Source: an uncultured Burkholderiales bacterium (lineage in GTDB: Bacteria > Pseudomonadota > Gammaproteobacteria > Burkholderiales > Burkholderiaceae_E). From it: a stretch of 43,676 nt of DNA. Every line of letters begins with the position of its first letter. Position 1 is the first letter of the stretch. The position numbers and the translations under genes were made by a program. Under the pieces are notes generated by a model that searched no databases, had not been told where the DNA came from, and was given only the letters and a program-made list of their open reading frames with translations. Shown one piece after another: positions 12,444 to 37,693 of this stretch. The stretch is from assembly GCA_903903975.1 (NCBI GenBank), contig CAIVAS010000164.1, forward strand, positions 1-43,676, written 5' to 3'.

Positions 12444-12462
12444 ATTGTCAGGGCTCGCAGCA

Positions 12463-13412: not shown

Positions 13413-13428
13413 TGCAATTGTCGTGCCG
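13413..13428 (-). promoter_or_regulatory. Candidate sigma-54 promoter for the amino-acid ABC operon
   Basis: On the minus strand the sequence reads CGGCAC (13428-13423), GACAA, TTGCA (13417-13413). It matches TGGCAC-N5-TTGC(A/T) except for the first base, with the essential -24 GG and -12 GC at correct spacing. It points toward the receptor gene at 13299. Transcription would start near 13400, giving a leader of about 100 bases. Confidence 0.6.
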
Positions 13429-13437
13429 GGCCTGCGC

Positions 13438-13463
13438 TACAATTCAGTGCGTATTCAGTGCGT
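13438..13463 (+). promoter_or_regulatory. -10-like TACAAT and 11-bp tandem repeat upstream of puuE
   Basis: TACAAT at 13438-13443 resembles a -10 box. Overlapping it, ATTCAGTGCGT occurs twice in direct tandem at 13442-13452 and 13453-13463, about one helical turn apart, 28 bases before the puuE ATG. No convincing -35 at 17 bases is visible. Tandem repeats with 11-bp phasing next to a start point are typical of regulator sites, but no regulator is identified. Confidence 0.4.
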
Positions 13464-13491
13464 CTTCCGTCCGTCAGCCACCCCGACTCCG

Positions 13492-14415: not shown

Positions 14416-14422
14416 GCGCCGC

Positions 14423-15661
14423 TTGAGCGCCTCCGGCTGTCGCTTCGGCGAATCGATCCTGGCGCGCGCCGAGCGGCTCGCCGCCATCACCCAGGATGCG
14501 CCCCGGGTCACCCGCGCCTACCTCACGCCCGAGCATCGGCGCGCCGGTGAGCTGATCGAGTCCTGGATGCGCGAAGCCGGCATGTCGGTTCACTGGGATG
14601 CGCTTGGCAATGTGGTCGGTCGCTATGAGGGCAATGTCGCCGATGCGCCGGTCCTCATGACCGGCTCGCACCTCGATACCGTGCGCAACGCCGGCCGCTA
14701 TGACGGTCTGTTCGGCATTCTGTCGCCGATCGCCTGCGTGGCAGATCTGCACCGCCGTGGCCTCAGGCTGCCGGTGGCGATCGAAGTGGTGGCTTTCGGC
14801 GATGAGGAGGGCGTGCGCTTCGGTGTCACGCTGATCGGCAGCAAGGCGATGGCTGGCGCTTTCAATCCGGCATGGCTTGACTGCACCGATGCCGATGGCC
14901 TCTCGATGCGCGATGCCCTGAGCGAGTTTGGCGGCGACCCGGATGCCCTGGCCAGCGTCGATCGGCGCGGCAAGGGCGTGGTCGCGTTCATCGAGTCGCA
15001 TATCGAACAGGGGCCGGTCCTGCTCGATGCCGGGCTGTCGCTCGGGGTGGTCACCGCGATTGCGGGTGCAAGCCGCATCCGCTGTGCCGTGACTGGCCTT
15101 GCCGGACACGCCGGCACGGTGCCGATGTCGGCACGACAGGATGCGCTCGCCGCCGCAAGCGAAATGGTGCTGGCGCTTGAGCGGCACTGCACGGTGCATC
15201 CGGGTCTGGTCGGTACGGTCGGGCGGCTGTCGGTGCTGCCGGGGGCGGTCAACGTGATTCCCCAGGATGTCGAATTCACCGTCGATCTGCGCTCAGGTGT
15301 CGATGCGACGCGCCGTGCGGCGCTCGAGGCATTGCGCGCCGAATTCGCGGACATCGCCACGCGGCGTCGGGTCAGGCTCGTTTTCGAGCCCTTTTTCGAG
15401 CTGGTCGCGGCGCCCTGCGACGAAGGTCTGCAGCAGCAGTTTGCCGACGCAATGGCCACCCAGGGGCTGCCGGTGAGGCATCTTCCCTCTGGCGCCGGTC
15501 ACGACGCGATGTCGTTTCCGGCGGTCTGCCCGATCGCCATGCTTTTTGTGCGCTGCGGCAATGGTGGCATCAGCCATCACCCCGACGAGACCATGACCCT
15601 TGAGGACGCCGATGCCGCGACCGAGGTGCTGCTGCGTTTTATCGAACACTTCGAGCCCTGA
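14423..15661 (+). CDS. allC: M20 amidohydrolase, allantoate amidohydrolase / N-carbamoyl amino-acid hydrolase family
   Basis: This dimetal hydrolase is most likely the next step after PuuE: allantoate to ureidoglycine, CO2 and ammonia. It is 412 aa, normal for the family. Metal ligands by motif are His83 in GSHLDTV, Asp94 in GRYDGLFG, Glu128/Glu129 in FGDEEGVRFG, His193 in IESHIEQGP and a late His in GISHHPDE. The dimerisation segment contains the family-typical GLAGHAGTVPMSAR. The start is a TTG at 14423, 7 bases after puuE; no ATG is suitably placed. Distinguishing allantoate from N-carbamoyl-amino-acid substrates by sequence is unsafe, and the assignment leans on the puuE neighbour. A hairpin (GAGCCC-TGA-GGGCTC, 15653-15667) encloses the stop codon. 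Confidence 0.85.
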   Translation: MSASGCRFGESILARAERLAAITQDAPRVTRAYLTPEHRRAGELIESWMREAGMSVHWDALGNVVGRYEGNVADAPVLMTGSHLDTVRNAGRYDGLFGILSPIACVADLHRRGLRLPVAIEVVAFGDEEGVRFGVTLIGSKAMAGAFNPAWLDCTDADGLSMRDALSEFGGDPDALASVDRRGKGVVAFIESHIEQGPVLLDAGLSLGVVTAIAGASRIRCAVTGLAGHAGTVPMSARQDALAAASEMVLALERHCTVHPGLVGTVGRLSVLPGAVNVIPQDVEFTVDLRSGVDATRRAALEALRAEFADIATRRRVRLVFEPFFELVAAPCDEGLQQQFADAMATQGLPVRHLPSGAGHDAMSFPAVCPIAMLFVRCGNGGISHHPDETMTLEDADAATEVLLRFIEHFEP

Positions 15662-15667
15662 GGGCTC
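15653..15667. other. Hairpin enclosing the stop codon of the allantoate hydrolase gene
   Basis: GAGCCC (15653-15658), TGA stop as loop, GGGCTC (15662-15667). It is perfect but short and has no T-run. A role in 3'-end stability is possible; read-through to the next gene cannot be excluded. Confidence 0.35.
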
Positions 15668-15791
15668 CGAAGGTCGGGATGGGGCAGTCGTCCGTCAGTC
15701 CGGCGCGAACTGATCGCCCAAAATTGTCAAACTCAGGAAACATTCTGGCACCATCGGTGTCGTGTATCAGGTCACCGTTTGGAGAACGCCC

Positions 15792-22548: not shown

Positions 22549-23961
22549 ATGAATCATCCCTATGCCCTGTCCGCGTCCCTGAAACGTCCGCTGCCCGAGG
22601 CGCTTGCCGCGCGGCTTCGCAGCCATTTTGGTGATCGCTTCAGCACGGCCGCTGCCGTGCGGGAGCATCACGGGCGAGATGAATCGCCCTTCCCGGTCAC
22701 ACCGCCCGATGCGGTCGTCTTTGCCCACTCGGTCGACGATATCGTCGAGGCGGTCAAGGCCTGTGCCGAGCATCGATTTCCGATCATCGCCTTCGGTGCC
22801 GGTTCGTCGCTAGAAGGGCATCTGCTGGCTGTTCAAGGTGGTCTGACCATCGACCTGAGCCAGATGAACAGCGTCATTTCGGTCGATGCCGAAGACCTCA
22901 CCTGCACCGTGCAGGCCGGAGTGACCCGCAAGCAGCTCAATGAGCACATCAAGGACACCGGTCTGTTTTTTCCGATCGACCCGGGCGCCGACGCTTCGCT
23001 TGGCGGCATGTCGGCCACGCGCGCCTCTGGAACCAACGCCGTGCGCTACGGCACGATGCGCGAGAACGTGCTCGGCCTGACGGTCGTGACCGCGCAGGGC
23101 AAAGTGATCCGCACCGGCGGTCGCGCCAAGAAGTCGTCGGCCGGCTATGACCTCACTCGGCTGATGGTGGGCTCCGAAGGCACACTCGGCATCATCGCCG
23201 AGGTGACGGTGCGGCTCTACCCGATGCCCGAGGCGATGTCGGCGGCGGTCTGCAATTTCTCGACCCTGTCGGACGCGGTGCGCACCGTGATCGAGACCAT
23301 TCAACTCGGCGTGCCGGTGGCCCGCAGCGAGTTCCTTGATGCCATGACGATCCGTGCGATCAACCGCCACAGCCACACCACCCTTCGAGAAGCACCGACG
23401 CTCTTTTTCGAGTTCCACGGCACCGAGTCGTCGGTGCGCGAGCAGGCGGCGACCGTGCAGGAAGTGGTGCATGCCAATGGCGGGCAGGACTTCGAATGGG
23501 CGACCCATCCCGAAGACCGCACGCGGCTCTGGAATGCCCGCCACAACGCCTATTTCGCCTGCCTGCAATTGCGACCGGGTTGCCGGGCGATTTCCACCGA
23601 CACCTGCGTGCCGATCTCCAGGCTGGCCGACTCGATCAACGGCGCCCGCGCCATTCTCGATACCGCCGACTTTCCGACCGCGCTGCTCGGGCACGTCGGC
23701 GATGGCAACTTCCACGCGGTGCTGCTCATCGACCCGGCCAATCAGGCGGAGGTCGAGCAGGCCGAACGCCTGAACGATCAGATCGTGCGCCTGGCCCTCT
23801 CGATGGACGGCACCTGCACCGGCGAACATGGCATCGGCCTGCACAAGATGGGCTTTCTGATTGAAGAGGCGGGCGAGGATGCGATCGATCTGATGCGTGG
23901 CATCAAGCGGGCCTTCGATCCCGACGGCATCCTGAATCCCGGCAAGATTTTTCGCGCCTGA
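22549..23961 (+). CDS. FAD-linked D-2-hydroxyacid dehydrogenase, D-lactate dehydrogenase (cytochrome) type
   Basis: This 470-aa flavoprotein oxidises a D-2-hydroxyacid and passes electrons to a respiratory carrier. The FAD-binding half has FGAGSSLEGHLLA, DPGADASLGGMSATRASGTNA and LMVGSEGTLGIIAEV. The C-terminal half has STDTCVPISRLADSI, the metal-site GHVGDGNFH and CTGEHGIGLHKMGF. The pattern fits D-lactate dehydrogenase (Dld1-like) better than the glycolate oxidase subunit GlcD, since no glcE/glcF follows. GAGG precedes the ATG. It has its own position between the hydrolase and the urease genes. A link to glycolate or other two-carbon acids from ureide breakdown is possible but not shown by the sequence. 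Confidence 0.92.
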   Translation: MNHPYALSASLKRPLPEALAARLRSHFGDRFSTAAAVREHHGRDESPFPVTPPDAVVFAHSVDDIVEAVKACAEHRFPIIAFGAGSSLEGHLLAVQGGLTIDLSQMNSVISVDAEDLTCTVQAGVTRKQLNEHIKDTGLFFPIDPGADASLGGMSATRASGTNAVRYGTMRENVLGLTVVTAQGKVIRTGGRAKKSSAGYDLTRLMVGSEGTLGIIAEVTVRLYPMPEAMSAAVCNFSTLSDAVRTVIETIQLGVPVARSEFLDAMTIRAINRHSHTTLREAPTLFFEFHGTESSVREQAATVQEVVHANGGQDFEWATHPEDRTRLWNARHNAYFACLQLRPGCRAISTDTCVPISRLADSINGARAILDTADFPTALLGHVGDGNFHAVLLIDPANQAEVEQAERLNDQIVRLALSMDGTCTGEHGIGLHKMGFLIEEAGEDAIDLMRGIKRAFDPDGILNPGKIFRA

Positions 23962-24006
23962 GCCATCTGTGCCATCTGTGCCATCTGGGCCATCTGTGCC
24001 ACCTGT
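23962..24006. repeat. Minisatellite of five 9-bp units between the dehydrogenase and ureD
   Basis: The unit GCCATCTGT is repeated five times (23962-23970, 23971-23979, 23980-23988, 23989-23997, 23998-24006), with single changes in unit 3 (last T to G) and unit 5 (T to C), followed by a further GCC. It begins at the dehydrogenase stop codon and ends 40 bases before the ureD ATG. It is not coding on the plus strand. Length variation by slippage is likely. Confidence 0.9.
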
Positions 24007-24046
24007 GCCTTCGATCCTCTGACCCCCCGCCCGAGTTGTCACACCG

Positions 24047-24943
24047 ATGGACCTTTCGCAGCAGCCTCAGGGGCCTCAGGGGCAGCCAGCCACCGGCTGG
24101 CGTGCGCGGCTCGATCTGCGTTTCGAAGATCGAGCCGGTCGCACGCGGCTGGTTCACAACCGGCATGAAGGGCCGCTGCGTCTGATCAAGGCCCTGCCGC
24201 TTGCCGATGGCCGCTGTCAGGCGGTGATCGTGCATCCACCGGGTGGGCTGGTCGGTGGCGATCGCCTCGACCTCGATATCCATCTCGCGCCGATGGCGCG
24301 TGTGCTGTGCACCACGCCGGGCGCCCAGAAGTGGTATCGCAGCACCGCGCATGCGGCGAGCGCCCGCACGCGGGTCAGGCTCGATGCGGCGGCTACACTC
24401 GAATGGCTGCCACAGCCGGCGATCGTCTATGACGCCGCGAGGGTCGATCAGTCGATTGCCTTCGATCTTGCGCCCGATGCCCGATTCATCGGCTGGGAGT
24501 GCCTGGTGCTCGGGCGGGCTGCGATGGGCGAGCGCTTTGATCGCGGCGCGCTGCGCCAGCGTCTGAGCCTCGATGTCGGCGGGGTGCCGCTCTGGGCTGA
24601 GCACCTCACCGCTGACGCCACCGACAGGCTTTTCAGTTCGCCGCTGGGGTTCGGCGGTCGGACCGTGGCCTGCACCGTCTGGGCGGTGGCGCCCGATGAC
24701 GCGCTCGACGAGGGTCTGCTGCAGGCCTGGCGAGGCGCCCTGGATGCAGCCTGCGCAGCCCCGCCCGGCAAGGCGATCCGGCTTGCGGCAGGCGCGTCTC
24801 GTACAACAGCCGGCTTGATCGCCGCCCGGCTGCTGGCCGATGATTCCGAGTCGGTGATGCAGGTCGCCCAGACGCTCTGGTCACTGGCCAGGCCGCTGGT
24901 GCTCGGTGCCGACAGCCCGCCTCCCCGCATTTGGGCGACCTGA
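24047..24943 (+). CDS. ureD: Urease accessory protein UreD
   Basis: UreD binds the urease apoprotein and, with UreF and UreG, delivers nickel and carbon dioxide to the active site. The protein is 298 aa, usual for the family. Typical segments are RTRLVHNRHEGPLRLIKAL, VHPPGGLVGGDRLDLD, TTPGAQKWYRS and LEWLPQPAIVYDAA. A short Gln/Gly/Pro-rich N-terminus precedes the conserved part. It opens the urease operon and is followed 49 bases later by ureA. The minisatellite ends 40 bases upstream; no clear promoter is visible there. Confidence 0.97.
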   Translation: MDLSQQPQGPQGQPATGWRARLDLRFEDRAGRTRLVHNRHEGPLRLIKALPLADGRCQAVIVHPPGGLVGGDRLDLDIHLAPMARVLCTTPGAQKWYRSTAHAASARTRVRLDAAATLEWLPQPAIVYDAARVDQSIAFDLAPDARFIGWECLVLGRAAMGERFDRGALRQRLSLDVGGVPLWAEHLTADATDRLFSSPLGFGGRTVACTVWAVAPDDALDEGLLQAWRGALDAACAAPPGKAIRLAAGASRTTAGLIAARLLADDSESVMQVAQTLWSLARPLVLGADSPPPRIWAT

Positions 24944-24992
24944 TCATCAGGACGCCTCCTTCAATCTCCTCACCCTCTGACCGGAACTCACG

Positions 24993-25295
24993 ATGGATCT
25001 GACGCCGCGCGAAAAGGACAAACTTCTGATCTTCACCGCCGGGCTGCTCGCCGAGCGCAGACGCGCTCGTGGCCTGAAGCTCAACTACCCGGAGGCCGTG
25101 GCCTACATCACGGCAGCCGTCCTCGAGGGTGCCCGCGATGGCCGCTCGGTGGCCGATCTGATGCACTACGGCACCACGCTGCTCGGTCGCGACGATGTGA
25201 TGGATGGCGTGCCCGAAATGATCCCCGACATCCAGGTCGAAGCCACCTTCCCGGATGGCACCAAGCTGGTGACGGTCCATCATCCGATCGCCTGA
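24993..25295 (+). CDS. ureA: Urease gamma subunit
   Basis: This is the smallest structural subunit of urease, 100 aa as expected. [23 protein letters not shown] and [21 protein letters not shown] are diagnostic, as is [22 protein letters not shown]. In most operons ureB follows directly. Here the complete urea transporter set urtABCDE intervenes, so ureA is separated from ureB by almost 6 kb while remaining on the same strand. The complex needs equal amounts of the three subunits, so this break matters for expression. Confidence 0.98.
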
Positions 25296-25363
25296 GCGGT
25301 CTGTTTTGCACGGTGGACGGGCGCATTGCGCACCAGAACAGGATGTTTTGATGCGCCACGGAG

Positions 25364-25379
25364 TGGCACGTTAGTTGCT
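25364..25379 (+). promoter_or_regulatory. Sigma-54 promoter upstream of urtA
   Basis: TGGCAC (25364-25369), GTTAG, TTGCT (25375-25379) is an exact match to TGGCAC-N5-TTGC(A/T). The transcript would begin near 25390, about 50 bases before the urtA start. A TGCAC at 25307-25311 and a GCGCACC at 25328-25334 could be parts of NtrC sites, but no full palindrome is clear. Nitrogen control of the urt genes by sigma-54 fits known biology. Confidence 0.8.
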
Positions 25380-25442
25380 GAGGATGGGCAGTGCGGAGAC
25401 CCCATCGTCCGTGCCAATACTTCCCAAAATCCGAGGATAGAA

Positions 25443-26708
25443 ATGACCCAACGCCGCGATTTCATCAAGGCTGCCGCTGCAGGCACCGCCTTGTCCCTCC
25501 CTGGCCTGACCGCCTCCAACATCGTCTTCGCGCAGGACAAATCGCCGATCAAGGTCGGTGTGCTGCACTCGCTGTCGGGCACGATGGCCATCTCCGAAAC
25601 CGCTCTGAAGAACACCGCGCTGATGACCTTCGAGGAAATCAACGCCAAGGGTGGCGTGCTCGGACGTCCTCTTGAGGCGGTCGTCGTCGACCCGGCCTCC
25701 AACTGGCCGCTGTTTGCCGAAAAAATGCGTCAGCTGATTTCGCAGGACAAGGTCGCTGCCACCTTCGGCTGCTGGACCTCGGTGTCGCGCAAGTCGGTGC
25801 TGCCGGTGGTCGAAGAGCTCAATGGCCTGCTGTTCTACCCGGTTCAGTACGAAGGTGAAGAGCTGTCGCAAAACGTGTTCTACACCGGTGCAGCCCCGAA
25901 TCAGCAGGCGATCCCGGCGGTTGAGTATCTGATGGGCAAGGGCGGCGGCAATGCCAAGCGCTGGTTCCTGGTCGGCACCGACTATGTCTATCCCCGCACC
26001 ACCAACAAGATTCTGCGTGCCTTCCTGAAATCGAAGGGCGTTGCTGAGAAAGACATCGAAGAGGTCTACACCCCCTTCGGTCACTCCGACTATCAGACCA
26101 TTGTTGCCAACATCAAGAAGTTCGCAGCCGGTGGCCGTACCGCAGTGGTCTCGACCATCAATGGCGACTCCAACGTGCCCTTCTACAAGGAGCTCGGCAA
26201 CCAGGGTCTCAAGGCCAAGGATGTCCCGGTCGTGGCCTTCTCGGTCGGAGAGGAAGAGCTGCGCGGCATCGACACCAAGCCGCTGGTTGGCCACCTTGCC
26301 GCCTGGAACTACTTCATGTCGGTCAAGAGCCCCGAGAACGACAAGTTCATCAAGAGCTACAAGACCTGGGCGGCTGCCAACAAGGTGCCCAATCCTGCCA
26401 CCGTGGTCACCAATGACCCGATGGAAGCGACGTATGTCGGTATCAACATGTGGAAGCAGGCGGTCGAGAAGGCCAAGTCGACCGATGTCGACAAGGTTCG
26501 CCCGGCAATGGCCGGCCAGACCTTCAAGGCGCCTTGCGGCTTCACGCTGACGATGGACAAGACCAACCACCACCTGCATCGCCCGGTGATGATCGGCGAG
26601 ATCCAGGCCAATGGTCAGTTCTCGGTCGTCTATCGCACGAAAGAGCCGATCCGCGCCAACCCCTGGTCGCCCTTCATTCCGGGCAACGAAGGCAAGCAGG
26701 GCGCCTGA
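25443..26708 (+). CDS. urtA: Urea ABC transporter substrate-binding protein
   Basis: UrtA is the periplasmic urea receptor of a branched-chain amino-acid-type importer. It is 421 aa. A twin-arginine signal (QRRDFIKAAAAGTALSLPGL split around it, cleavage near FAQ) implies folded export. The mature start IKVGVLHSLSGTMAISET, FGCWTSVSRKSVLPV and LLFYPVQYEGEE are diagnostic for UrtA rather than LivJ/AmiC. ATG 25443 has GAGG upstream and follows the sigma-54 promoter. The gene is followed by two strong hairpins before urtB, which would favour a higher level of receptor than of membrane subunits. Confidence 0.97.
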   Translation: MTQRRDFIKAAAAGTALSLPGLTASNIVFAQDKSPIKVGVLHSLSGTMAISETALKNTALMTFEEINAKGGVLGRPLEAVVVDPASNWPLFAEKMRQLISQDKVAATFGCWTSVSRKSVLPVVEELNGLLFYPVQYEGEELSQNVFYTGAAPNQQAIPAVEYLMGKGGGNAKRWFLVGTDYVYPRTTNKILRAFLKSKGVAEKDIEEVYTPFGHSDYQTIVANIKKFAAGGRTAVVSTINGDSNVPFYKELGNQGLKAKDVPVVAFSVGEEELRGIDTKPLVGHLAAWNYFMSVKSPENDKFIKSYKTWAAANKVPNPATVVTNDPMEATYVGINMWKQAVEKAKSTDVDKVRPAMAGQTFKAPCGFTLTMDKTNHHLHRPVMIGEIQANGQFSVVYRTKEPIRANPWSPFIPGNEGKQGA

Positions 26709-26714
26709 TTGATC

Positions 26715-26759
26715 CCGGTCTGCGCCGCGTCGGGATGACGCGGCGTTTTCGCAGACCGG
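26715..26759 (+). terminator. Nested hairpin with internal T-run after urtA (attenuator-like)
   Basis: An inner perfect 9-bp stem, CGCCGCGTC (26723-26731) with GACGCGGCG (26737-26745), is followed by TTTT (26746-26749), as in an intrinsic terminator. An outer perfect 10-bp stem, CCGGTCTGCG (26715-26724) with CGCAGACCGG (26750-26759), surrounds both and shares two bases with the inner stem. It lies just after the urtA stop and before urtB. Partial termination here would raise receptor over permease mRNA. Confidence 0.7.
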
Positions 26760-26778
26760 CTTTATCGATTGCCTGCAG

Positions 26779-26816
26779 GCAAGCCGCGGGGGAGCTATGC
26801 TCGCCCCTCGGCTTGC
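26779..26816. other. Second long hairpin between urtA and urtB
   Basis: GCAAGCCG (26779-26786) pairs with CGGCTTGC (26809-26816); inside, GGGG and GAGC pair with CCCC and GCTC around a 3-base loop, with one mismatch and one bulge. No T-run follows. Such stems commonly block 3' exonucleases and would protect the urtA message. Confidence 0.6.
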
Positions 26817-26868
26817 AGGCTGCGCTCGCCGGCAGCCTCCCGGTGTCGGACTGATTTTCTGGATCCCC

Positions 26869-28503
26869 ATGACAGTGTTCACCCCTCTGCTTCGCCGGTG
26901 CGTGCGCGGCATCTCGGTCTGCGCGTCGCTGCTTGCGATCGTCTGGACGAGTGCGGCCTTAGCCGTCGATCCGGAGATCCTCAAGCGGCTGGCCTCTGAC
27001 GATTTCGACGAGAAGGCAGCGGCCATCGAAGCGATTGCCGCAGCGCCCGACGACACCACGCTGCCGGTGCTCAAGGCCTTGCAGGATGGCGGGCTCTTCG
27101 TCGACGGCAAGGGTGGCGGCTGGATCAAGGCGGCAGACGGTGTACTCGATGCGGCCACCGGCAAGCCTGCCGAGATGCCGACGCCCGAACCCGATGAAGT
27201 CACGATCAACAACAATCTGCGCGGCCAGATCGATGGCGCGGTCGCAGCACTGAAACTGTTTTCGCCCGAGCGCGAGCTCAGGCTGGCCGCCGCACTCGCC
27301 CTGCAGGAAGGCGGTGACGAAGCCCTGCTGGCCACCCTGCGCAAGGCGCAGGAGAAAGAAACGGATCCTGAGGTCAAGCAGGCGGTGGCGCTGGCCGTGG
27401 CCGCGATCACGATCAAGTCCGATGACCCCAAGTTGCGTCTTGAGGCGGTGCAGGCGCTTGGTGACAGCGACCGGGCCGATGTCAAGACACTGCTGGCTGC
27501 GATCGTCGTTCAGAACGCCGACGGCAGCTGGGCCGAGAGCGACGATGCGGTGCGCACCGCGGCACGGGCCTCGCTGGCGCAGGTGTCGGCCCGACTGTCT
27601 CGCGCTGAGTGGCTCGGTCGGATCTTCGCCGGTCTGTCGCTTGGCAGCATCCTGATGCTGGCCGCGATCGGACTGGCCATCACCTATGGTCTGCTGGGCG
27701 TGATCAACATGGCCCATGGCGAGATGATCATGATCGGCGCCTATGCCACCTATGTCACGCAGACGGTGTTTCGCCAGGCCTTTCCTGATGCCTTCGCCTG
27801 GTATCCGCTGGTGGCCTTGCCTGTGGCTTTTCTGGCGGCGGCACTCGTGGGCGTGCTGATCGAGCGCACCGTGATCCGCTGGCTCTACGGTCGTCCCCTC
27901 GAGACGCTGCTGGCCACATGGGGGGTGAGCCTCATCCTGATCCAGGCGGTGCGCCAGGTCTTCGGTCCGCAAAACGTCGAGATCGAGAACCCGGCCTGGC
28001 TGTCTGGCGGGTTTCAGTTCGGCTCGCTGGTGCTGCCCTACAACCGCATCGTGATCATCGGTTTCGCGCTCGCCGTTCTGCTGGTGGTGGCGCTGGTGCT
28101 CAACCGCACGCGTCTGGGCCTGTTTGTGCGCGGGGTGACCCAGAACCGGCCGATGGCCTCGGCGGTGGGTGTGCCGACCGATCGGGTCGACATGCTGGCC
28201 TTCGGGCTGGGCTCGGGCATCGCCGGGCTGGCCGGTGTCGCCCTGTCGCAGGTCGGCAATGTCGGCCCTGAGCTGGGCACCTCCTACATCATCGATTCAT
28301 TCATCGTCGTGGTGCTCGGCGGTGTCGGGCAACTGGTGGGGACCGTGGTGGCGGGATTCGGGCTGGGTGTGGCGAGCAAGCTGCTCGAGCCCTGGCTGGG
28401 GGCGGTCATCAGCAAGATCCTGATCCTCGCGCTGATCATTGCGTTCATCCAGAAGCGTCCTTCGGGGCTGTTCGCCCTCAAGGGCCGTTCGGTGGAGACC
28501 TGA
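26869..28503 (+). CDS. urtB: Urea ABC transporter permease
   Basis: This inner-membrane permease is 544 aa, long because UrtB carries an extra N-terminal domain. After a signal-like segment (about residues 11-31) there is a roughly 220-residue extracytoplasmic region of helical repeats (for example RELRLAAALALQEGGDEALL), then a LivH-like domain from about residue 250. Motifs in the permease part are GLLGVINMAHGEMIMIGAY, LETLLATWGVSLILIQ and GVTQNRPMASAVGV. ATG 26869 is used. A start 72 bases earlier is in frame but lies inside the second hairpin and is less likely. It is followed by urtC after one base. Confidence 0.96.
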   Translation: MTVFTPLLRRCVRGISVCASLLAIVWTSAALAVDPEILKRLASDDFDEKAAAIEAIAAAPDDTTLPVLKALQDGGLFVDGKGGGWIKAADGVLDAATGKPAEMPTPEPDEVTINNNLRGQIDGAVAALKLFSPERELRLAAALALQEGGDEALLATLRKAQEKETDPEVKQAVALAVAAITIKSDDPKLRLEAVQALGDSDRADVKTLLAAIVVQNADGSWAESDDAVRTAARASLAQVSARLSRAEWLGRIFAGLSLGSILMLAAIGLAITYGLLGVINMAHGEMIMIGAYATYVTQTVFRQAFPDAFAWYPLVALPVAFLAAALVGVLIERTVIRWLYGRPLETLLATWGVSLILIQAVRQVFGPQNVEIENPAWLSGGFQFGSLVLPYNRIVIIGFALAVLLVVALVLNRTRLGLFVRGVTQNRPMASAVGVPTDRVDMLAFGLGSGIAGLAGVALSQVGNVGPELGTSYIIDSFIVVVLGGVGQLVGTVVAGFGLGVASKLLEPWLGAVISKILILALIIAFIQKRPSGLFALKGRSVET

Positions 28504-28504
28504 G

Positions 28505-29611
28505 ATGCTGACCGCGCGAGCCACCAGGCTTTTTTCGCCGCTGCAGTGGACATTGCTGGCCCTGGCCTTTCTGGTGATCGGCGTGGCCGTGCCGCTTGCC
28601 CACGCGCTGCTGCCGGTCGACGCGAGTCTGCGGCCATCGACCTACATCGTGACCCTCGCCGGCAAGTTCATGTGCTATGCCATGGTCGCGATCGCCATGG
28701 ATCTGATCTGGGGCTATACCGGCATCCTGAGTCTGGGGCAGTCGCTGTTTTTTGCGCTCGGCGGCTATGCCTTCGGCATGTATCTGATGCGCGGCATCGG
28801 CCGCGAAGGCCAGTATCAGAGCCTGCTGCCCGACTTCATGGTCTTTCTCGACTGGAAGGCCTTCCCCTGGCAGTGGTGGAATACCGACAGCTTTTTGTGG
28901 AGCGTCTTTCTGGTCGTGGCAGTGCCGGGTCTGCTGGCCTTCGTGTTCGGATTTTTCGCCTTCCGCTCACGCATCAAGGGCGTCTATTTTTCGATCATCA
29001 CGCAGGCGCTCACCTTCGCCTTCATGCTGCTCTTTTTCCGCAACGAGACCGGGTTCGGCGGCAACAACGGCTTCACCGATTTCAAAACGCTGCTGGGTTT
29101 CCGGATCACCGATCCGGCCACCAAGGCCTCGCTGCTGGCGGCCACCGCCGTCGCGCTCTTTGGCACATTTGTGCTGGCGCGCTGGCTGGTCACCCGCAAG
29201 TTCGGTCGCGTGCTGCAGGCGATCCGCGATGCCGAGTCGCGGGCGCGCTTTTGCGGTTACGACACGCTCAACTACAAGCTCGGTATCTGGACGCTGGCCG
29301 CCATCATCAGCGGCGTGGCAGGTGCGCTCTATGTGCCGCAGGTCGGCATCATCAACCCGAGCGAGATGTCGCCGGCCAATTCAATCGAAATTGCGATCTG
29401 GACCGCGGTCGGTGGCCGCGGCACCCTGATCGGCCCGATCATCGGCGCCCTGCTGGTCAATGGTGCCAAGAGCTGGTTTACGCAGGCTTTCCCTGAATAC
29501 TGGCTGTTTTTCCTGGGTCTGCTCTTTGTGCTGGTCACGCTCTTTTTGCCGCAGGGCGTCATTGCGCTCTTCAAGCCCCGCAGCGCGTCATCGAAGGCAG
29601 GCAAATCGTGA
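28505..29611 (+). CDS. urtC: Urea ABC transporter permease
   Basis: This is the second inner-membrane permease of the urea importer, LivM-like, 368 aa with 8 or more hydrophobic segments. Diagnostic parts are IAMDLIWGYTGILSLGQSLFF, FRNETGFGGNNGFTDFK and QAIRDAESRARFCGYD. It begins one base after the urtB stop, and its stop codon overlaps the urtD GTG. The frame is open upstream into urtB, but the family begins at the ATG used here. Confidence 0.96.
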   Translation: MLTARATRLFSPLQWTLLALAFLVIGVAVPLAHALLPVDASLRPSTYIVTLAGKFMCYAMVAIAMDLIWGYTGILSLGQSLFFALGGYAFGMYLMRGIGREGQYQSLLPDFMVFLDWKAFPWQWWNTDSFLWSVFLVVAVPGLLAFVFGFFAFRSRIKGVYFSIITQALTFAFMLLFFRNETGFGGNNGFTDFKTLLGFRITDPATKASLLAATAVALFGTFVLARWLVTRKFGRVLQAIRDAESRARFCGYDTLNYKLGIWTLAAIISGVAGALYVPQVGIINPSEMSPANSIEIAIWTAVGGRGTLIGPIIGALLVNGAKSWFTQAFPEYWLFFLGLLFVLVTLFLPQGVIALFKPRSASSKAGKS

Positions 29612-30363
29612 ACGTCGACGTCTCGCACCGTGTCATTCTTTACCTCGAAGGCGTGACGGTCAGCTTCGATGGTTTTCGCGCGCTCAACGATCTGTCGCTC
29701 AGCCTGGACGATGGCGAACTGCGCTGCATCATCGGGCCCAATGGTGCCGGCAAGACGACCATGATGGACGTCATCACCGGCAAGACCCGGCCCGATACCG
29801 GCCGCGTGTTCTTCGGGCAGACCCTCGATCTCACCGCGATGTCCGAGTCGCAGATCGTGCAGGCCGGCATCGGTCGCAAGTTCCAGCGGCCCACGGTCTT
29901 CGAGACCATGAGCGTGTTCGAGAACATGGAGCTCGCGCTCAAGACCGACAAGGGCGGTCTGGCCAGCCTGCGGGCCAGGCTCGATTCCGAGCAGCTCGGT
30001 CGCATCGAATCGATCCTGCAACTGACCAATCTGCGCGATGAGGTTGATCGGCTTGCCGGCACGCTGTCTCACGGCCAGAAGCAATGGCTCGAGATCGGCA
30101 TGCTGCTGTCGCAGGACCCACGGGTGGTGCTGCTCGATGAGCCGGTCGCCGGCATGACCGATGCCGAGACCGACAAGACCGCCGAGTTGTGCCTGCAGCT
30201 CGAAAAGAAGCACACCGTGGTCGTGGTCGAACATGACATGGACTTTGTCTCGAAGATCGCCCGCAAGGTCACCGTGCTGTCGGAGGGCAGTGTGCTCGCC
30301 GAGGGGCCGATGGATGCGGTTCGCAATGACCAGCGTGTGATCGAGGTCTACCTGGGTCGCTGA
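29608..30363 (+). CDS. urtD: Urea ABC transporter ATP-binding protein
   Basis: This is a LivG-type ATPase of 251 aa. It has Walker A GPNGAGKTTMMDVITG, the variant signature LSHGQKQWLEIGMLL typical of UrtD, Walker B VVLLDEPVAGM and the switch His in VVVEHDMDFV. The start is GTG 29608, overlapping the urtC stop (GTGA). It pairs with UrtE to form the heterodimeric motor of the importer. Confidence 0.96.
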   Translation: MNVDVSHRVILYLEGVTVSFDGFRALNDLSLSLDDGELRCIIGPNGAGKTTMMDVITGKTRPDTGRVFFGQTLDLTAMSESQIVQAGIGRKFQRPTVFETMSVFENMELALKTDKGGLASLRARLDSEQLGRIESILQLTNLRDEVDRLAGTLSHGQKQWLEIGMLLSQDPRVVLLDEPVAGMTDAETDKTAELCLQLEKKHTVVVVEHDMDFVSKIARKVTVLSEGSVLAEGPMDAVRNDQRVIEVYLGR

Positions 30364-30372
30364 GAGGCAAGC

Positions 30373-31068
30373 ATGCTGAAAATCGAAGGGCTCAATCAGT
30401 ATTACGGCGGCAGCCATACCCTGCGCAATGTGTCGTTCGAGGCGCCGATGGGTGCTGTCACCACCGTGCTCGGTCGCAACGGCATGGGCAAGACCACCCT
30501 GCTCAAATGCCTGATGGGACTGTTGCCGGTCGAGTCGGGGCGCATCGAGTTCGAGGGCCGCGACATCACGCATCTGAAGCCGCATCAGCGTGCCCAGATG
30601 GGCATTGCGCTGGTGCCCCAGGGCCGCGAGATTTTTGCGCGTCTGAGTGTCGAGGACAATCTGCGTATCGCGATGGCGGCCACCGGGCAGACCGACCGCA
30701 GCGTGCTCGACTCGAGCTATGAGACCTTTCCGATCCTCAAGCAGTTCGCGCGCCGCCGCGGCGGTGACCTCTCGGGCGGCCAGCAGCAGCAGCTAGCCAT
30801 TGCGCGAGCGCTGGTCACCAAGCCGCGCCTGCTGATCCTCGATGAACCGACCGAGGGCATCCAGCCCAACATCATTCAATACATCGAAGCGGTGATCGCC
30901 AAACTGGCGGCCGACCGGACGATGGCGATTCTCCTGGTCGAACAGTATTACGACTTCGCACGCACGCTGGCCGACCGCTATGTGGTGCTGCAGCGGGGCG
31001 AGGTGCTGCGCACCGGCGAGGGCAAGCAGATGGACCAGGATGGGGTGCGGGGCCTGCTGTCGGTCTGA
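30373..31068 (+). CDS. urtE: Urea ABC transporter ATP-binding protein
   Basis: This is a LivF-type ATPase of 231 aa. It has LNQYYGGSHTLRNVSFEA at the N-terminus, Walker A GRNGMGKTTLLKCLMG, ALVPQGREIFARLSVEDNL, signature LSGGQQQQLAIARAL and Walker B LILDEPTEGIQPNI. It is the last urt gene, 9 bases after urtD. No terminator is seen in the 129 bases before ureB, so transcription probably continues into the urease genes. Confidence 0.96.
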   Translation: MLKIEGLNQYYGGSHTLRNVSFEAPMGAVTTVLGRNGMGKTTLLKCLMGLLPVESGRIEFEGRDITHLKPHQRAQMGIALVPQGREIFARLSVEDNLRIAMAATGQTDRSVLDSSYETFPILKQFARRRGGDLSGGQQQQLAIARALVTKPRLLILDEPTEGIQPNIIQYIEAVIAKLAADRTMAILLVEQYYDFARTLADRYVVLQRGEVLRTGEGKQMDQDGVRGLLSV

Positions 31069-31197
31069 TCACGAATTGAAGGCAGTCTCCGACAGGCCGA
31101 TGCCTGCGCTTCCCGTTTATCATCCGATCCAGGGTCGCTACGCACGAGGCTGCGAAACGATCCACCTCACAGCCTTCCCCGACCTGAAAGACCCATC

Positions 31198-31551
31198 ATG
31201 ATTCCTGGCGAAATGCTGATCGACGACGGCGATATCGAGCTCAATGCCGGTCGCCCGCGCATCGAGATCGTCGTGCGCAATACCGGTGACCGACCGATTC
31301 AGGTCGGTTCGCACTATCACTTCTTCGAGACCAATTCGGCCCTCGACTTCGATCGCGAAGCCGCCCGCGGCCACCGGCTCGACATCGCCTCGGGCACCGC
31401 GGTGCGGTTCGAACCGGGCCAGGCCCGCACGATCGGGCTGATTGCGCTCGCCGGCGATCGCATCATCTACGGATTTCGCCAACTGGTGATGGGGCCGCTC
31501 GATGCAGCGCCGGCCGCGAAAGTGCGCGCACCCAAAAAGAAGAAGGTCTGA
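31198..31551 (+). CDS. ureB: Urease beta subunit
   Basis: This structural subunit of urease is 117 aa. [39 protein letters not shown] and [19 protein letters not shown] are diagnostic. A Lys-rich C-terminus ends the protein. It is separated from ureA by the urtABCDE block and from ureC by 2 bases. The 129-base gap before it contains no obvious promoter or terminator. Confidence 0.98.
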
Positions 31552-31553
31552 TC

Positions 31554-33275
<1,722 letters not shown>

Positions 33276-33291
33276 GCAGGCGACCCAAGCC

Positions 33292-33801
33292 ATGACGCTG
33301 ATTGTTGCGACATCGATGGCGCCGGTCGGCCGGCCGGTCGACGAGGTGATCGAGCTGGCTTTCGAGCAGCGCGAGCGATCCCGGTTTCGGGCCACGCTGC
33401 TGTCGGGCGAGGAGATCGGTGTTGATCTGCCGCCGGGCACGCTGCTGCGCCATGGTGATCGGCTGCTGCTGGCAGACGGGCGCATCGTGGCGATCGAAGC
33501 CGCCCCCGAGCGTCTGCTCGAGGTCCATGCCCATGATGCGATCGAACTGGCCCGCATCGCCTATCACATCGGCAATCGGCATGTGCCGATCCAGATCGGT
33601 GACGGTTTCGTGCGACTGCTGCCCGACCATGTGCTGCAGGCGATGATCGAGCGGCTCGGTGGTCATGTGCATGAGGTCAGCGTCGGCTTTCAGCCCGAGT
33701 CGGGCGCCTACGGCCACAGCCATGTGCATCATCAGCATGATGATCAGGGCCATGGCGGACGCATTCATGTTTTCGATCCGCGCCACGGCGAATCAGCCTG
33801 A
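33292..33801 (+). CDS. ureE: Urease accessory protein UreE (nickel chaperone)
   Basis: UreE binds nickel and delivers it to the UreG complex. It is 169 aa. The conserved nickel-site segment is ELARIAYHIGNRHVPIQI and the central part is LPDHVLQAMIERLGG. The C-terminal tail is rich in histidine (GHSHVHHQHDDQGHGGRIH), which adds nickel storage capacity. It is followed by ureF after 13 bases. A nickel buffer of this kind may matter because the neighbouring nickel permease gene is shrunken. Confidence 0.96.
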   Translation: MTLIVATSMAPVGRPVDEVIELAFEQRERSRFRATLLSGEEIGVDLPPGTLLRHGDRLLLADGRIVAIEAAPERLLEVHAHDAIELARIAYHIGNRHVPIQIGDGFVRLLPDHVLQAMIERLGGHVHEVSVGFQPESGAYGHSHVHHQHDDQGHGGRIHVFDPRHGESA

Positions 33802-33814
33802 GCCGCGTGCCCTC

Positions 33815-34540
33815 ATGACCCGCCGCAGCGCAGCCCTGCTTCAACTGGCGAGCCCGGCTCTGCCGATTGGCGGCTACAGCTATTCCACCGGCCTTGAATG
33901 GGGCATCGAGAGCGGACAGGTCAAGGATGAGGCGGGTGCGCGCGAATGGGTGGCCGATGCGCTCGCGCTCACGCTTGCCCGTTTTGATGGGCCGCTGATG
34001 CTGGCCGCGCTGCGTCAGGCGCGGACGCTTCATCCTGTCGATGTGCAGGACGCGGCCGATTCTGCGGATACCGACGAGCGCTTCGAGCAGCTTGCTGCGC
34101 TCAATGCCAAGGCGATCGCGGCGCGCGAAACCGCCGAGTTGCGGCTCGAATCGCAGCAGATGGGCTATTCGATGGCGCGCTGGTTCGAGGCGGTCTGCCC
34201 CGATCCGCGCACCGATGCGCGGCTGATCGCGAGGCTTGCACCGCTGTCATTGCCGGTGGCCTGGGCCGTGGCGGCGGCGCGCCTTGCGCTGTCCGACGAG
34301 GATGCACTGCTTGGTTTTGTGTGGGCTTTCGTCGAGAATCAGGTGATGGTCCTGATGAAGGCCATGCCGATGGGCCAGATCGCCGCGCAGCGTCTGTTAC
34401 GCTCACTCGGCCCAGAGATCGATCAGGCCATCGATGCCGCACTGTCCCTGACCGAGCACGACTGGTCGAGCGCCGCGCCGCTGCTGGCGATCGCGTCGGC
34501 CCGCCACGAAACCCAGTATTCGAGACTTTTCAGATCCTGA
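33815..34540 (+). CDS. ureF: Urease accessory protein UreF
   Basis: UreF is a helical scaffold that joins UreD-urease and UreG during nickel insertion. It is 241 aa. [22 protein letters not shown] is the family hallmark, followed by [11 protein letters not shown] and [11 protein letters not shown]. The start is ATG 33815; the frame is open earlier within ureE, but the family begins at [13 protein letters not shown]. It is 4 bases from ureG. Confidence 0.97.
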
Positions 34541-34544
34541 CACC

Positions 34545-35156
34545 ATGAGCGCACACGGACCCCTTCGGGTTGGCATCGGCGGGCCGGTCGGCTCGGGCAA
34601 GACCGCGCTCACGCTGGCATTGTGCCGCCGCCTTCGCAGCCGCTACGACATTGCGGCGGTCACCAACGACATCTATACCCGCGAGGACGCCGAGTTCCTG
34701 GTCAAGAACGATGCGCTGCCCAAGGAGCGCATTCTCGGGGTCGAGACCGGCGGTTGCCCGCATACCGCGATCCGCGAAGATGCCTCGATCAACCTCGAGG
34801 CGGTCGACCGCCTGTCACGGGCATTTCCCGGGCTGCAGATCGTCTTCGTCGAATCGGGCGGCGACAATCTGGCGGCCACGTTTTCGCCCGAACTGTCCGA
34901 TCTCACCATCTATGTGATCGATGTGGCGGCCGGCGAAAAAATCCCGCGCAAGGGCGGCCCCGGCATCATGAAGTCCGATTTGCTGGTGATCAACAAGATC
35001 GATCTCGCGCCTTATGTGGGCGCCTCGCTCGAGGTCATGGACCGCGATGCACGCGCGATGCGCGGCGAGCGTCCCTTCATTTTTTCCAACATGAAAGAAG
35101 GCCTGGGCCTGGACGATATCGTGTCGTTCATCGAGCGTCGCGGTCTTTTTTCCTGA
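34545..35156 (+). CDS. ureG: Urease accessory GTPase UreG
   Basis: UreG is the GTPase that drives nickel insertion. It is 203 aa. P-loop [15 protein letters not shown], the metal-binding [17 protein letters not shown] with the Cys-Pro-His motif, [16 protein letters not shown] and [16 protein letters not shown] are all present. It is the last complete urease accessory gene; a shrunken HupE/UreJ gene follows 63 bases later. Confidence 0.98.
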
Positions 35157-35219: not shown

Positions 35220-35477
35220 ATGAGCCACTTTCGCCTTCTGACTGCCGCCGCTGCGGCGCTGCTTGCAACCCCCCTGTCGGCGCTGGCCCACGATGGTCAC
35301 GGCTCAAGCGTGCTTGTCGCCCTTTTCGTGCATCCCTTCAGCGGCCTCGATCATCTGGCCGCGATCGTTGCGATCGGTGCTCTGACCGGCGTGGCCCTGG
35401 CAAGCCTTGCACTCTTCGTGGTCGGCCGCGCGATCGGACTCTTAATCGCTCAACTGCCGCTGGCTCGGGCTCCATGA
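35220..35477 (+). pseudogene. Shortened HupE/UreJ-like nickel permease gene
   Basis: Only 85 codons are present; HupE/UreJ proteins are normally about 190-200 aa with several membrane segments and two His-rich motifs. What remains is the signal peptide (LLTAAAAALLATPLSALAHDGHG), the first hallmark motif HPFSGLDHLAAIVAIGA and then a terminal-type membrane segment (ALASLALFVVGRAIGLLI). The central membrane segments with the second His motif are missing, yet the frame is intact, as expected from an internal in-frame deletion. It ends by overlapping the next kinase start (ATGA). It may be a relic, or a short metal-binding membrane peptide may still be made. Position after ureG is the normal place for ureJ. 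Confidence 0.7.
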
Positions 35478-37681
35478 TTGATGAGATCGATCTGGCGGTC
35501 TGGCGCCTCGATCTGAATCACCGGGTCATCGAGCTGAACCGCGCGGGGCGGCAACTGTTCGGTCTGGCCGACGCCGACCCGATCGACAATCTCGACTGGC
35601 GCTCGGCATTTCATCCGGACGATCTCGGGCTGGCGCAGGCAGCGCTGCTTGCCGGGACCGGCTCGCGCGACGAAGCGGGCTGTGATTTGCGGGCCCGGGC
35701 AAACGACCCGTCGGGTTTTCGATGGTTCAAATTTGGCGTCCGTGCCCGCCGCCTCGGCGGGGGCGATCACATCGGATGGACCTGCTTTGCGCGAGATATC
35801 CACGGGCTGTTTCTGGCCCGGACCGCGTTGCAGCAATCAGAGCGACTGCTGAAGGTGACTTTCGGCACCGGTCCGATGGGCAGCTGGCGGCATGTCCGGG
35901 GCGAGCCACGCCTCGATGTGGACGAGTTCATTTGCAGAATGTGGGGGCTGCCACCGGGGCAAGGCTCGGTGTTGCTGACCGATCTGATCGGGTCAATCCA
36001 TCCGGCCGATCGCAAACAGTTTGCGAAGGCTGAAGAACAGGCCTGGCACGCGGGCTCATTGGACGGCAGCTTTCGATTTCGACGCCCCGACGGAGAGTTT
36101 CGATGGCAGCGATCCATTGGTGTCCTGGTGACCGATCCCGGTAGCGGGCGTCCGGCATTGATCGGTGTCAGCACCGATGTCACCGAGCGCCAGCAGGCGC
36201 GCAAGGAATTACGGATCTCGTCGCAGCGCCTGAAGATCGCGCTCGATGTCAGCAAGGTGCTGCTTTACACGATGGATCGCGAGCTGCGCTATACCTGGCT
36301 GCATTCGCCCGAGCGCAATCTCGACCATCTGATCGGCAAGCGCGACGACGAGATCCGCGAGAACCCCGCACAAGCTCGCGAACTGATGGCCTTCAAGCGA
36401 GAGGTGCTCGACAGCGGCATCGGTGCCCAACGCCTGTCCCTGATCGACATTGATGGTGAAGCGCTCCATCTCGACGCCTCGATCGAGCCGCTTCACGACG
36501 AGGACGGAAAGATTCAGGGCCTCGCAGGCGCGGTCTTCAATGTCACCAAGCGGCGCCGTGCCGAGATCGCGCTGCGCGAGGCCAACCAGCGCAAGGACGA
36601 TTTTCTGGCGATCCTGTCGCATGAATTGCGAAACCCGCTGGCGCCGATTCGCAATGCGCTTGCATTGATGCACGAGTCTGACTCGCAGGAGGTGCGCGCT
36701 CGTGCTCTGCCGATCATCGATCGTCAGGTCCGGCAGATGAGCCGGCTGATCGATGATCTGCTCGACATCTCGCGCCTGACCAATGGCCGGCTGAGCCTGC
36801 GCCGAGAGCCGGTCGATATGACCGAATTGCTTCGATATATCGGCGGCGCGCAGGGGCTGGTCTTGCAGTCGCGCCAGCAGCAGGTCGAGGTGACGCTGCC
36901 TGAGCATGCGCTGGTGATCGATGGCGATCGTGGGCGGATCGGGCAGGTGTTGGCCAATCTCTTCAACAATGCCTCGAAGTTCACGCCGCAGGGTGGGCGG
37001 GTCTGGCTTGAGGCGCACGCCGAGGGGGCGGATCTCGTCATTCGCATTGGTGACAACGGCATCGGTATTGCGGCCGATCAGCTCGAGCGGATCTTCGAGA
37101 AATTCGCGCAATTGCCGCCCAATGAAGGCATGACTGACAATGGGCTGGGCATCGGTCTGCACCTGGCGCGAGAGCTAGTCACGATGCACGGCGGCTCGAT
37201 CGTGGCGCGCAGCGAGGGGCTCGGAAAAGGCAGCGAGTTCATCGTGCGTCTGCCGCTCAGCGAGCGCGAGGCGGCGTCGCCCGCGGCCATCCCGGCGCCG
37301 GTCGCGCGGCCTGCTGCGCTCAGCGTTCTGGTGGTCGATGACAACCCCGATATCACTGAGACCATGACGCTGCTGCTGCAGGCCTGGGGCTATCGCACAC
37401 TCAGCTCAACCGATGGGGCTGCCGGCCTGGCGCTGTTCGAGGCGCAGCATCCCGATGTGGTGCTGATGGATATCGGCATGCCCCGCATGGACGGCTACGA
37501 GCTGGCTCGGCGGATCCGCGCCTTGCCCGGTGGCAAAGCCGTGTCGCTGATCGCGGTGTCGGGCTGGGGGCAGGCGGCCGATCTTGCCCGCAGCCGCGAG
37601 GCGGGCATCGATGAGCATCTGCTCAAGCCGGTCGATCCGACCCGTCTGCGTGAAGCGCTCGAGCGCTGCGCCCTGGTCTGA
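35474..37681 (+). CDS. Cytosolic PAS hybrid histidine kinase with C-terminal receiver (copy 1)
   Basis: This is a 735-aa protein without membrane segments. Three PAS-type domains lie at about residues 1-115, 120-240 and 245-365, ending in family-typical TDVTERQQARKEL and FNVTKRRRAEIAL. The phospho-acceptor is His383 in LSHELRNPLAPI. The ATPase domain has N-box NLFNNASKF and G-boxes GDNGIGI and GLGIGLH. A receiver ends the protein, with Asp666 in LMDIGMPRMDG. It starts inside the stop of the shortened HupE/UreJ gene (ATGA), so translation may be coupled to the urease operon. A paralogue with the same layout follows 12 bases later. There is no DNA-binding regulator nearby. The ligand is unknown. 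Confidence 0.92.
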   Translation: MIDEIDLAVWRLDLNHRVIELNRAGRQLFGLADADPIDNLDWRSAFHPDDLGLAQAALLAGTGSRDEAGCDLRARANDPSGFRWFKFGVRARRLGGGDHIGWTCFARDIHGLFLARTALQQSERLLKVTFGTGPMGSWRHVRGEPRLDVDEFICRMWGLPPGQGSVLLTDLIGSIHPADRKQFAKAEEQAWHAGSLDGSFRFRRPDGEFRWQRSIGVLVTDPGSGRPALIGVSTDVTERQQARKELRISSQRLKIALDVSKVLLYTMDRELRYTWLHSPERNLDHLIGKRDDEIRENPAQARELMAFKREVLDSGIGAQRLSLIDIDGEALHLDASIEPLHDEDGKIQGLAGAVFNVTKRRRAEIALREANQRKDDFLAILSHELRNPLAPIRNALALMHESDSQEVRARALPIIDRQVRQMSRLIDDLLDISRLTNGRLSLRREPVDMTELLRYIGGAQGLVLQSRQQQVEVTLPEHALVIDGDRGRIGQVLANLFNNASKFTPQGGRVWLEAHAEGADLVIRIGDNGIGIAADQLERIFEKFAQLPPNEGMTDNGLGIGLHLARELVTMHGGSIVARSEGLGKGSEFIVRLPLSEREAASPAAIPAPVARPAALSVLVVDDNPDITETMTLLLQAWGYRTLSSTDGAAGLALFEAQHPDVVLMDIGMPRMDGYELARRIRALPGGKAVSLIAVSGWGQAADLARSREAGIDEHLLKPVDPTRLREALERCALV

Positions 37682-37693
37682 ACCGGAATCCTG

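What the first reader, a model, noticed from the sequence alone, without database searches (positions are those of the whole stretch)
24047..35156. Urea transporter operon embedded inside the urease operon, splitting ureA from ureB
The order is ureD-ureA-[urtA-B-C-D-E]-ureB-C-E-F-G, all on one strand. Normally ureA, ureB and ureC are contiguous and the urt genes lie beside the cluster, not within it. With the sigma-54 promoter and attenuator-like hairpin inside the insert, ureA and ureBC could be transcribed differently although their products are needed in equal amounts. It may instead couple urea uptake directly to UreBC synthesis.
Basis: partly seen in the sequence, partly recalled or inferred. 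Interest (0 to 1): 0.62.

Follow-up and report, generated by a model that had tools for sequence, protein, structure and literature searches.

The report
Urea transporter genes splitting urease operon
In a little-known genus of Burkholderiales the five urea-uptake genes and their nitrogen-starvation-type promoter sit between the first and second urease subunit genes, a real, inherited and rare rearrangement that probably leaves part of the urease outside the usual nitrogen control.

Summary
Observation confirmed: ureD-ureA-urtABCDE-ureB-ureC-ureE-ureF-ureG, all on +. It is not a misassembly. Of 12 genomes held for the genus, 9 show ureA followed by urtA: 6 with the whole order on one contig, 1 across two overlapping contigs, 2 running off contig ends. 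Three are contiguous. One genome of another genus of the family, G087, has the same order. Elsewhere it is rare: 0 of 60 other scorable genomes in an order sample, 1 of 47 in a class sample (G502), and a related dispersal in 1 of 66 in a phylum sample (G406). A sigma-54-type site precedes urtA (25364) and none was seen before ureD. The usual order is promoter-urtABCDE-ureDABCEFG, so uptake and urease are already coupled; what is new is that ureD and ureA lie outside that control. Probable history: a promoter-urt block came to lie at the ureA|ureB junction, with later loss of urt in some relatives. In G001 ureA joins a spacer homologous to the urtE-ureB spacer. Separate regulation is inferred, not shown. 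New variant of a known kind.

The parts
24047..24943 (+). ureD, urease accessory protein; upstream half of the split cluster
   Evidence: Pfam UreD 190 bits; no sigma-54-like site in the 347 bases before it
24993..25295 (+). ureA, urease gamma subunit
   Evidence: NCBIfam urease gamma 177 bits, cut-off 123
25364..25379 (+). sigma-54 promoter-like site TGGCACGTTAGTTGCT upstream of urtA
   Evidence: 12 of 12 consensus positions; 10-12 of 12 in 8 of the other 9 split genomes read, degraded in G004
25443..26708 (+). urtA, urea-binding protein with Tat-type signal
   Evidence: TIGR03407 581 bits, cut-off 492.75; TIGR01409 over its cut-off
26714..26762 (+). intercistronic RNA hairpin between urtA and urtB
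   Evidence: fold z-score -2.57 over 26700-26800
26797..28503 (+). urtB, urea permease subunit with N-terminal HEAT-like extension
   Evidence: TIGR03409 421 bits; HEAT_2
28505..29611 (+). urtC, urea permease subunit
   Evidence: TIGR03408 441 bits
29608..30363 (+). urtD, urea transporter ATPase
   Evidence: TIGR03411 381 bits
30373..31068 (+). urtE, urea transporter ATPase
   Evidence: TIGR03410 334 bits
31069..31197 (+). urtE-ureB spacer; its homologue directly follows ureA in G001
   Evidence: G001 ureA-ureB spacer against this spacer: local score 76, shuffled mean 22.8, 0 of 500 reach it
31198..31551 (+). ureB, urease beta subunit
   Evidence: NCBIfam urease beta 169 bits, cut-off 129
31554..33275 (+). 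ureC, urease alpha (catalytic) subunit
   Evidence: TIGR01792 958 bits, cut-off 680; nickel-site and catalytic motifs present
33292..33801 (+). ureE, nickel chaperone
   Evidence: NCBIfam UreE 170 bits, cut-off 144
33773..34540 (+). ureF, accessory protein (start approximate)
   Evidence: Pfam UreF 125 bits
34545..35156 (+). ureG, GTPase accessory protein
   Evidence: TIGR00101 342 bits, cut-off 204
22549..23961 (+). GlcD-like FAD oxidase, upstream neighbour of ureD in 11 of 12 genus genomes (the contig of G007 ends before it); possible source of transcription into ureDA
   Evidence: below the GlcD cut-off

Best explanation
A working urease/urea-uptake cluster was rearranged in an ancestor: the promoter-plus-urtABCDE block that normally precedes ureD came to lie between ureA and ureB. 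The result is probably two overlapping transcription units. The upstream one (ureDA) is read from sequence before ureD, perhaps as the tail of the GlcD-like gene's transcript. The downstream one (urtABCDE-ureBCEFG) starts at the sigma-54 promoter and is switched on by nitrogen limitation through an NtrC-type activator. UreD and UreA would then be made at a background level and UreB, UreC, UreE, UreF, UreG and the transporter on demand. Shown: order, conservation, promoter position, rarity, G001 junction. Inferred: direction of the move, transcript boundaries, NtrC control, and any use of the split.
For: Same order on one contig in G000, G002, G004, G005, G006, G010; across two contigs with a 123-bp end overlap in G011; ureD-ureA-urtA to the contig end in G003 and G008. 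Usual order urtABCDE-ureDABC in the family genomes G014 and G016 and as the most frequent order in the named loci that reach both sets. Sigma-54-like site upstream of urtA at 10-12 of 12 in 9 of 10 split genomes read; none (9 or more of 12) upstream of ureD in the 9 split genomes where that stretch was read, nor in the 8 urtE-ureB spacers read. urtA, urtC and ureC trees each separate genus g1 plus G087 from the rest with support 100. rpoB trees: a five-genome clade all split, clade G007/G009 contiguous, clade G000-G003 split but for G001, outgroups joining on the side of the all-split clade. G001's ureA-ureB spacer matches three urtE-ureB spacers (scores 76, 83, 105; shuffled about 23; 0 of 500 each) and not two ureA-urtA spacers. 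Convergence: G502 has ureD-ureA-[sigma-54-like 11/12]-porin-urtABCDE-ureB, with the urtE stop overlapping the ureB start; G406 has a sigma-54-like site (12/12)-urtABCDE-ureBC on one contig and ureD-ureA-ureJ-ureEFG on another.
Against: No transcript or protein data. Read-through from ureA across 147 bp could make one long mRNA; the only terminator-like match at the end of ureA (25286-25301) is weak, such matches are not far above the chance number (11 found, 6.2 with sd 3.0 expected), and the stretch differs in G002 and G005 (by eye). No sigma-70-like promoter was found in the 250 bases before ureD. Three genus members do without the embedded urt and its promoter. Gaps over 400 bp at ureD|ureA and ureA|ureB are frequent in named loci (11 of 40 and 9 of 42, the latter including the split record itself, against 1 of 42 at ureB|ureC), which fits simple tolerance of these junctions. 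The one clade II spacer tested (G007) carries no trace of a former insert, so ancestral presence there is inferred from the tree only. The move from upstream of ureD rests on the usual order elsewhere; no intermediate was seen.
Confidence: 0.55

Rival explanations
1. The split is real but has no regulatory effect: ureA|ureB is a junction that tolerates inserts, ureDA and the rest are joined by read-through, and the internal promoter only adds to it.
For: Other inserts at this junction: KdpA, a P-type ATPase, KdpC, KdpD and a response regulator in G622; cyanase plus a TauE-like gene in G328; a 2OG-Fe(II) oxygenase in G491; UreJ directly after ureA in G406. Published: cynS between ureA and ureB in Acidihalobacter (PMC9062700, passage). 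In Synechocystis the ure genes are fully scattered (PMC6737895, passages). No conserved terminator between ureA and urtA was seen.
Against: In three lineages (g1/G087, G502, G406) what stands upstream of ureB is the urt operon with a sigma-54-like site, and ureD has none.
Confidence: 0.33
2. The urt block did not move from upstream of ureD but was inserted between ureA and ureB from elsewhere in the genome or from another organism, into a cluster that had no adjacent urt.
For: Contiguous clusters exist in the genus (G001, G007, G009), which lack this urt type above the UrtA cut-off, and in the family (G013, seen on an 8.2-kb contig only); upstream of ureD is a GlcD-like gene and no urt remnant was seen there.
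Against: urt and ureC trees show the same grouping of g1 with G087, as expected if both were inherited together; the split is found on both sides of the deepest rpoB division of the genus. Neither bears directly on where the block came from.
Confidence: 0.35
3. Assembly or binning artefact.
For: The genomes are fragmented drafts; G002 holds both a split and a contiguous version, and the contiguous contig C124 is 99.4% identical to G001; G003's urtA-C contig is 99.2% identical to the window while its ureA contig is 92-94% identical.
Against: The same junctions in separate genomes that are only about 90% identical to the window in DNA (G002, G005), with conserved junction spacers.
Confidence: 0.02

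Closest known systems
urtABCDE-ureDABCEFG cluster of Herbaspirillum, Burkholderia and Cupriavidus
   Same: Same genes, a sigma-54-like site before urtA (Cupriavidus L067 12/12, Herbaspirillum L121 11/12, Burkholderia L099 10/12), same internal order of each block.
   Different: Here ureD-ureA precede the promoter and urt block instead of following it.
Acidihalobacter urease cluster with cynS between ureA and ureB (PMC9062700, passage)
   Same: Foreign gene in the same ureA|ureB junction.
   Different: One metabolic gene there; here a five-gene transporter operon with its own promoter-like site.
   Same: ureD-ureA-[sigma-54-like]-urtABCDE-ureBCEFG.
   Different: Distant urt type (47% UrtA), an added porin gene, and ureB overlapping urtE; looks independent by sequence and by its relatives.
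Cyanobacteria with dispersed urease genes (PMC6737895, passages)
   Same: Subunit genes need not be contiguous.
   Different: Dispersed over the chromosome, not split by the transporter.

Membership tests
Canonical nitrogen-controlled urt-ure cluster | urtABCDE immediately upstream of ureD | tested here: not met
Canonical nitrogen-controlled urt-ure cluster | ureA, ureB and ureC contiguous | tested here: not met
   5.9 kb between ureA and ureB
Canonical nitrogen-controlled urt-ure cluster | sigma-54 site upstream of urtA | tested here: met
   12 of 12 at 25364
Canonical nitrogen-controlled urt-ure cluster | NtrC/sigma-54-dependent expression of all ure genes | not testable with these tools
   no transcript data
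Nickel urease (UreABC with UreDEFG) | all seven genes and the nickel-site motifs of UreC | tested here: met
   (UreD and UreF by Pfam only)
Urea ABC transporter UrtABCDE | all five subunits above NCBIfam cut-offs | tested here: met

The most novel reading that the evidence does not exclude
Placing ureBC behind a sigma-54-driven urt operon while ureD and ureA stay outside it is a recurrent, selected regulatory design: UreD and the gamma subunit are kept at a constant level while the catalytic part of urease is made only when urea is taken up under nitrogen limitation. It appears to have arisen three times in the genomes sampled (this family, G502, G406).
Probability: 0.2. Interest if true: 0.6.

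Novelty: new variant of a known kind. Interest (0 to 1): 0.4.

Why it matters
It is a natural experiment on whether a 1:1:1 enzyme needs its subunit genes in one transcription unit. Close relatives with and without the insert at the same site (G000 and G001) and a seemingly independent copy of the same design (G502) make the question testable.

Tried and rejected
Misassembly: rejected by separate genomes. A second ureA or ureB elsewhere that would make the split irrelevant: none found in G000. 'Common order': rejected. Attenuator: rejected by position. Remnant of urt in the contiguous clade II spacer: none found in G007, the one tested. Order conserved in relatives of G502: the other 4 urease-bearing genomes of 31 in its order are contiguous. 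Around G406, 73 of 76 genomes have a match and among the rows listed only G406 has ureA and ureB on different contigs (the match list was cut short, so this is not a full count). The plasmid search for urtE next to ureB was uninformative: the top hit's match also covers ureD and ureA by its annotation, the rest of the 30 rows shown cover about the UrtE part only, and 155 records with 80% or more of the query covered were not examined. Literature: searches (the last for the Lac Pavin source); I saw listings and read passages of five papers only (PMC6737895, PMC9062700, PMC5840417, PMC5491218, PMC3093359). In those, the nearest things were the cynS case, the cyanobacterial scattering and a ureA-ureB gene fusion in Rhizobiales (PMC5840417); no report of a urt insert was seen. 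The searches ignore case, so 'ureA' also matches 'urea', and most subscription papers are missing.
Full report
What is there. The window is the whole of contig C164 of a 3.95-Mb draft genome. Pfam and NCBIfam identify ureD, ureA, urtA, urtB, urtC, urtD, urtE, ureB, ureC, ureE, ureF and ureG, in that order, all on +. The genome shows no second UreA or UreB. UreC keeps the expected nickel-site and catalytic motifs (motif list recalled). Five genes were compared between G000, G002 and G005: ureA, urtA, ureB, ureC and urtE differ by 3.5-9.6% in DNA; four of them differ by 0-3% in protein, while UreB differs by 5-10%. They look under selection, least clearly UreB.

Is it an artefact? Twelve genomes are held for the genus. 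Six carry the split order on one contig (G000, G002, G004, G005, G006, G010). G011 carries it on two contigs whose ends share 123 bp. G003 and G008 show ureD-ureA-urtA and then end. G001, G007 and G009 have ureA next to ureB. G002 also has a contiguous copy on a 5.5-kb contig 99.4% identical to G001, which may be bin contamination. G002 and G005 are about 90% identical to the window over the cluster, so these are separate genomes.

How common is it? All counts use one gamma-plus-beta urease model, and the gaps were read from the tables by eye; the samples overlap. Family: 62 genomes outside the genus, 30 with a match; 26 have both halves joined or within 0.7 kb, three show one half only, and one (G087) has the split. 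G087 has ureD-ureA-urtA-urtB on one contig and urtB-urtC-urtD-urtE-ureB-C-E-F-G on another, with a shared 127-bp end. Order: 150 genomes, 62 others with a match; 60 joined or within 0.8 kb, two with one half only. Phylum: 200 genomes, 66 others with a match; 65 joined or within 1.5 kb and one (G406) on two contigs. Class: 185 genomes, 47 others with a match; 45 joined or within 1.5 kb, and two (G502 and G622) with gaps of 6.0 and 8.3 kb.

Other cases at this junction. G502 has ureD-ureA, a sigma-54-like site (11 of 12), a porin gene, urtABCDE, then ureB whose start codon overlaps the urtE stop, then ureC-E-F-G. Its urt genes are 47-53% identical to ours, and the four other urease-bearing genomes of its order are contiguous. 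G406, of another class, has a sigma-54-like site (12 of 12), urtABCDE, ureB and ureC on one contig, and ureD, ureA, ureJ, ureE, ureF and ureG on another. G622 has a Kdp-type potassium-pump gene set between ureA and ureB, G328 a cyanase gene and a TauE-like gene, and G491 an oxygenase gene. A published parallel is cynS between ureA and ureB in Acidihalobacter (PMC9062700, passage). In the named loci, gaps over 400 bp occur at D|A in 11 of 40, A|B in 9 of 42 (including the split record), B|C in 1 of 42, C|E in 0 of 30, E|F in 0 of 23 and F|G in 1 of 18. The first two junctions of the cluster tolerate inserts; ureB|ureC rarely does.

Control. The site TGGCACGTTAGTTGCT at 25364 fits the sigma-54 consensus (recalled) at 12 of 12 positions. 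It is at 12 of 12 in G002, G003 and G005, 11 in G006, G008, G010 and G011, and 10 in G087; it is damaged in G004, whose urt block also has several deletions. No such site was seen before ureD in the nine split genomes where that stretch (about 250-380 bp) was read, nor in the eight urtE-ureB spacers read. In named loci a site of at least 10 of 12 lies near the urtA start in 51 of 79; the background is 0.076 per kb and strand. Among the canonical genomes scanned singly, G014, L059 and L102 showed none. So the urt promoter is probably ancestral and normally also stands before ureDABCEFG. This agrees with the Herbaspirillum genome paper (PMC3093359, passages) and the Burkholderia NtrC regulon (PMC5491218, passages).

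History. rpoB trees give three clades: five split genomes; G007 and G009, both contiguous; and G000-G003, split but for G001. Outgroups join on the side of the all-split clade (G005 had no rpoB match, several sequences are partial, and support inside the G000-G003 clade is 46-81). The urtA, urtC and ureC trees each separate g1 plus G087 from the rest with support 100; the ureG tree is poorly resolved inside the genus. The simplest account is one origin of the split and at least two later losses of urt. G001 supports loss: its ureA-ureB spacer matches the urtE-ureB spacer of three split relatives (scores 76, 83 and 105 against a shuffled mean near 23, 0 of 500) and not two ureA-urtA spacers. 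The same match would also be seen if urt had been inserted just after ureA, so the direction rests on the tree. G007's spacer shows no such match. G001, G007 and G009 each keep a different, distant urt operon elsewhere, as do the window's own genome on contig C217 and G002. By rpoB (426 residues) G087 belongs to another genus (92.5% to G018, 81-84% to this one), its cluster sits beside a different gene, read by eye as a PQQ-type sugar dehydrogenase, and its relative G018 has a different contiguous cluster. Horizontal transfer of the whole split cluster is likely but deep common ancestry is not excluded.

Verdict. A real, conserved and rare rearrangement of two well-known gene sets. The likely mechanism is two transcription units with only the second under nitrogen control; this is inferred from promoter position and needs transcript data. 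Nothing categorically new is needed to explain it.

Noticed in passing
L178 (G502), 4763-15714: Seemingly independent ureD-ureA-[sigma-54-like]-porin-urtABCDE-ureBCEFG cluster in another family of the class; the ureB start codon overlaps the urtE stop codon.
   Followed up: partly
L138 and L139 (G406): ureBC behind a sigma-54-like site and urtABCDE on one contig, and ureD-ureA-ureJ-ureEFG on another, in a genome rated 100% complete.
   Followed up: partly
L179 (G622), 6264-15174: A Kdp-type gene set (KdpA, P-type ATPase, KdpC, KdpD, response regulator) sits between ureA and ureB on the same strand.
   Followed up: partly
L181 (G328) 7033-8536 and L180 (G491) 7510-8887: Cyanase plus TauE-like gene, and a 2OG-Fe(II) oxygenase gene, between ureA and ureB.
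   Followed up: partly
L036 (G004), 8400-12600: The embedded urt block has several deletions with changed frames and a damaged sigma-54-like site, while the ure genes align over nearly their whole length: decay in progress or assembly gaps.
   Followed up: partly
L144 (G003:C230): urtA-C here are 99.2% identical to the window although the contig that should precede it (C177) is only 92-94% identical: strain mixing or recombination.
   Followed up: no
window 31704-31992 (-): Rfam RF02514 (5' ureB antisense sRNA) matches at 125 bits opposite the start of ureC; it may only reflect conserved coding sequence.
   Followed up: no
window 23964-24010: Short imperfect tandem repeats (units of about 12 bp) between the GlcD-like gene and ureD, seen by eye.
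   Followed up: no
window 35474-39991: Two adjacent PAS hybrid histidine kinases follow ureG; homologues follow ureG in G001 and G002 and, as far as the fetched stretch reaches, the first of them in G005.
   Followed up: no
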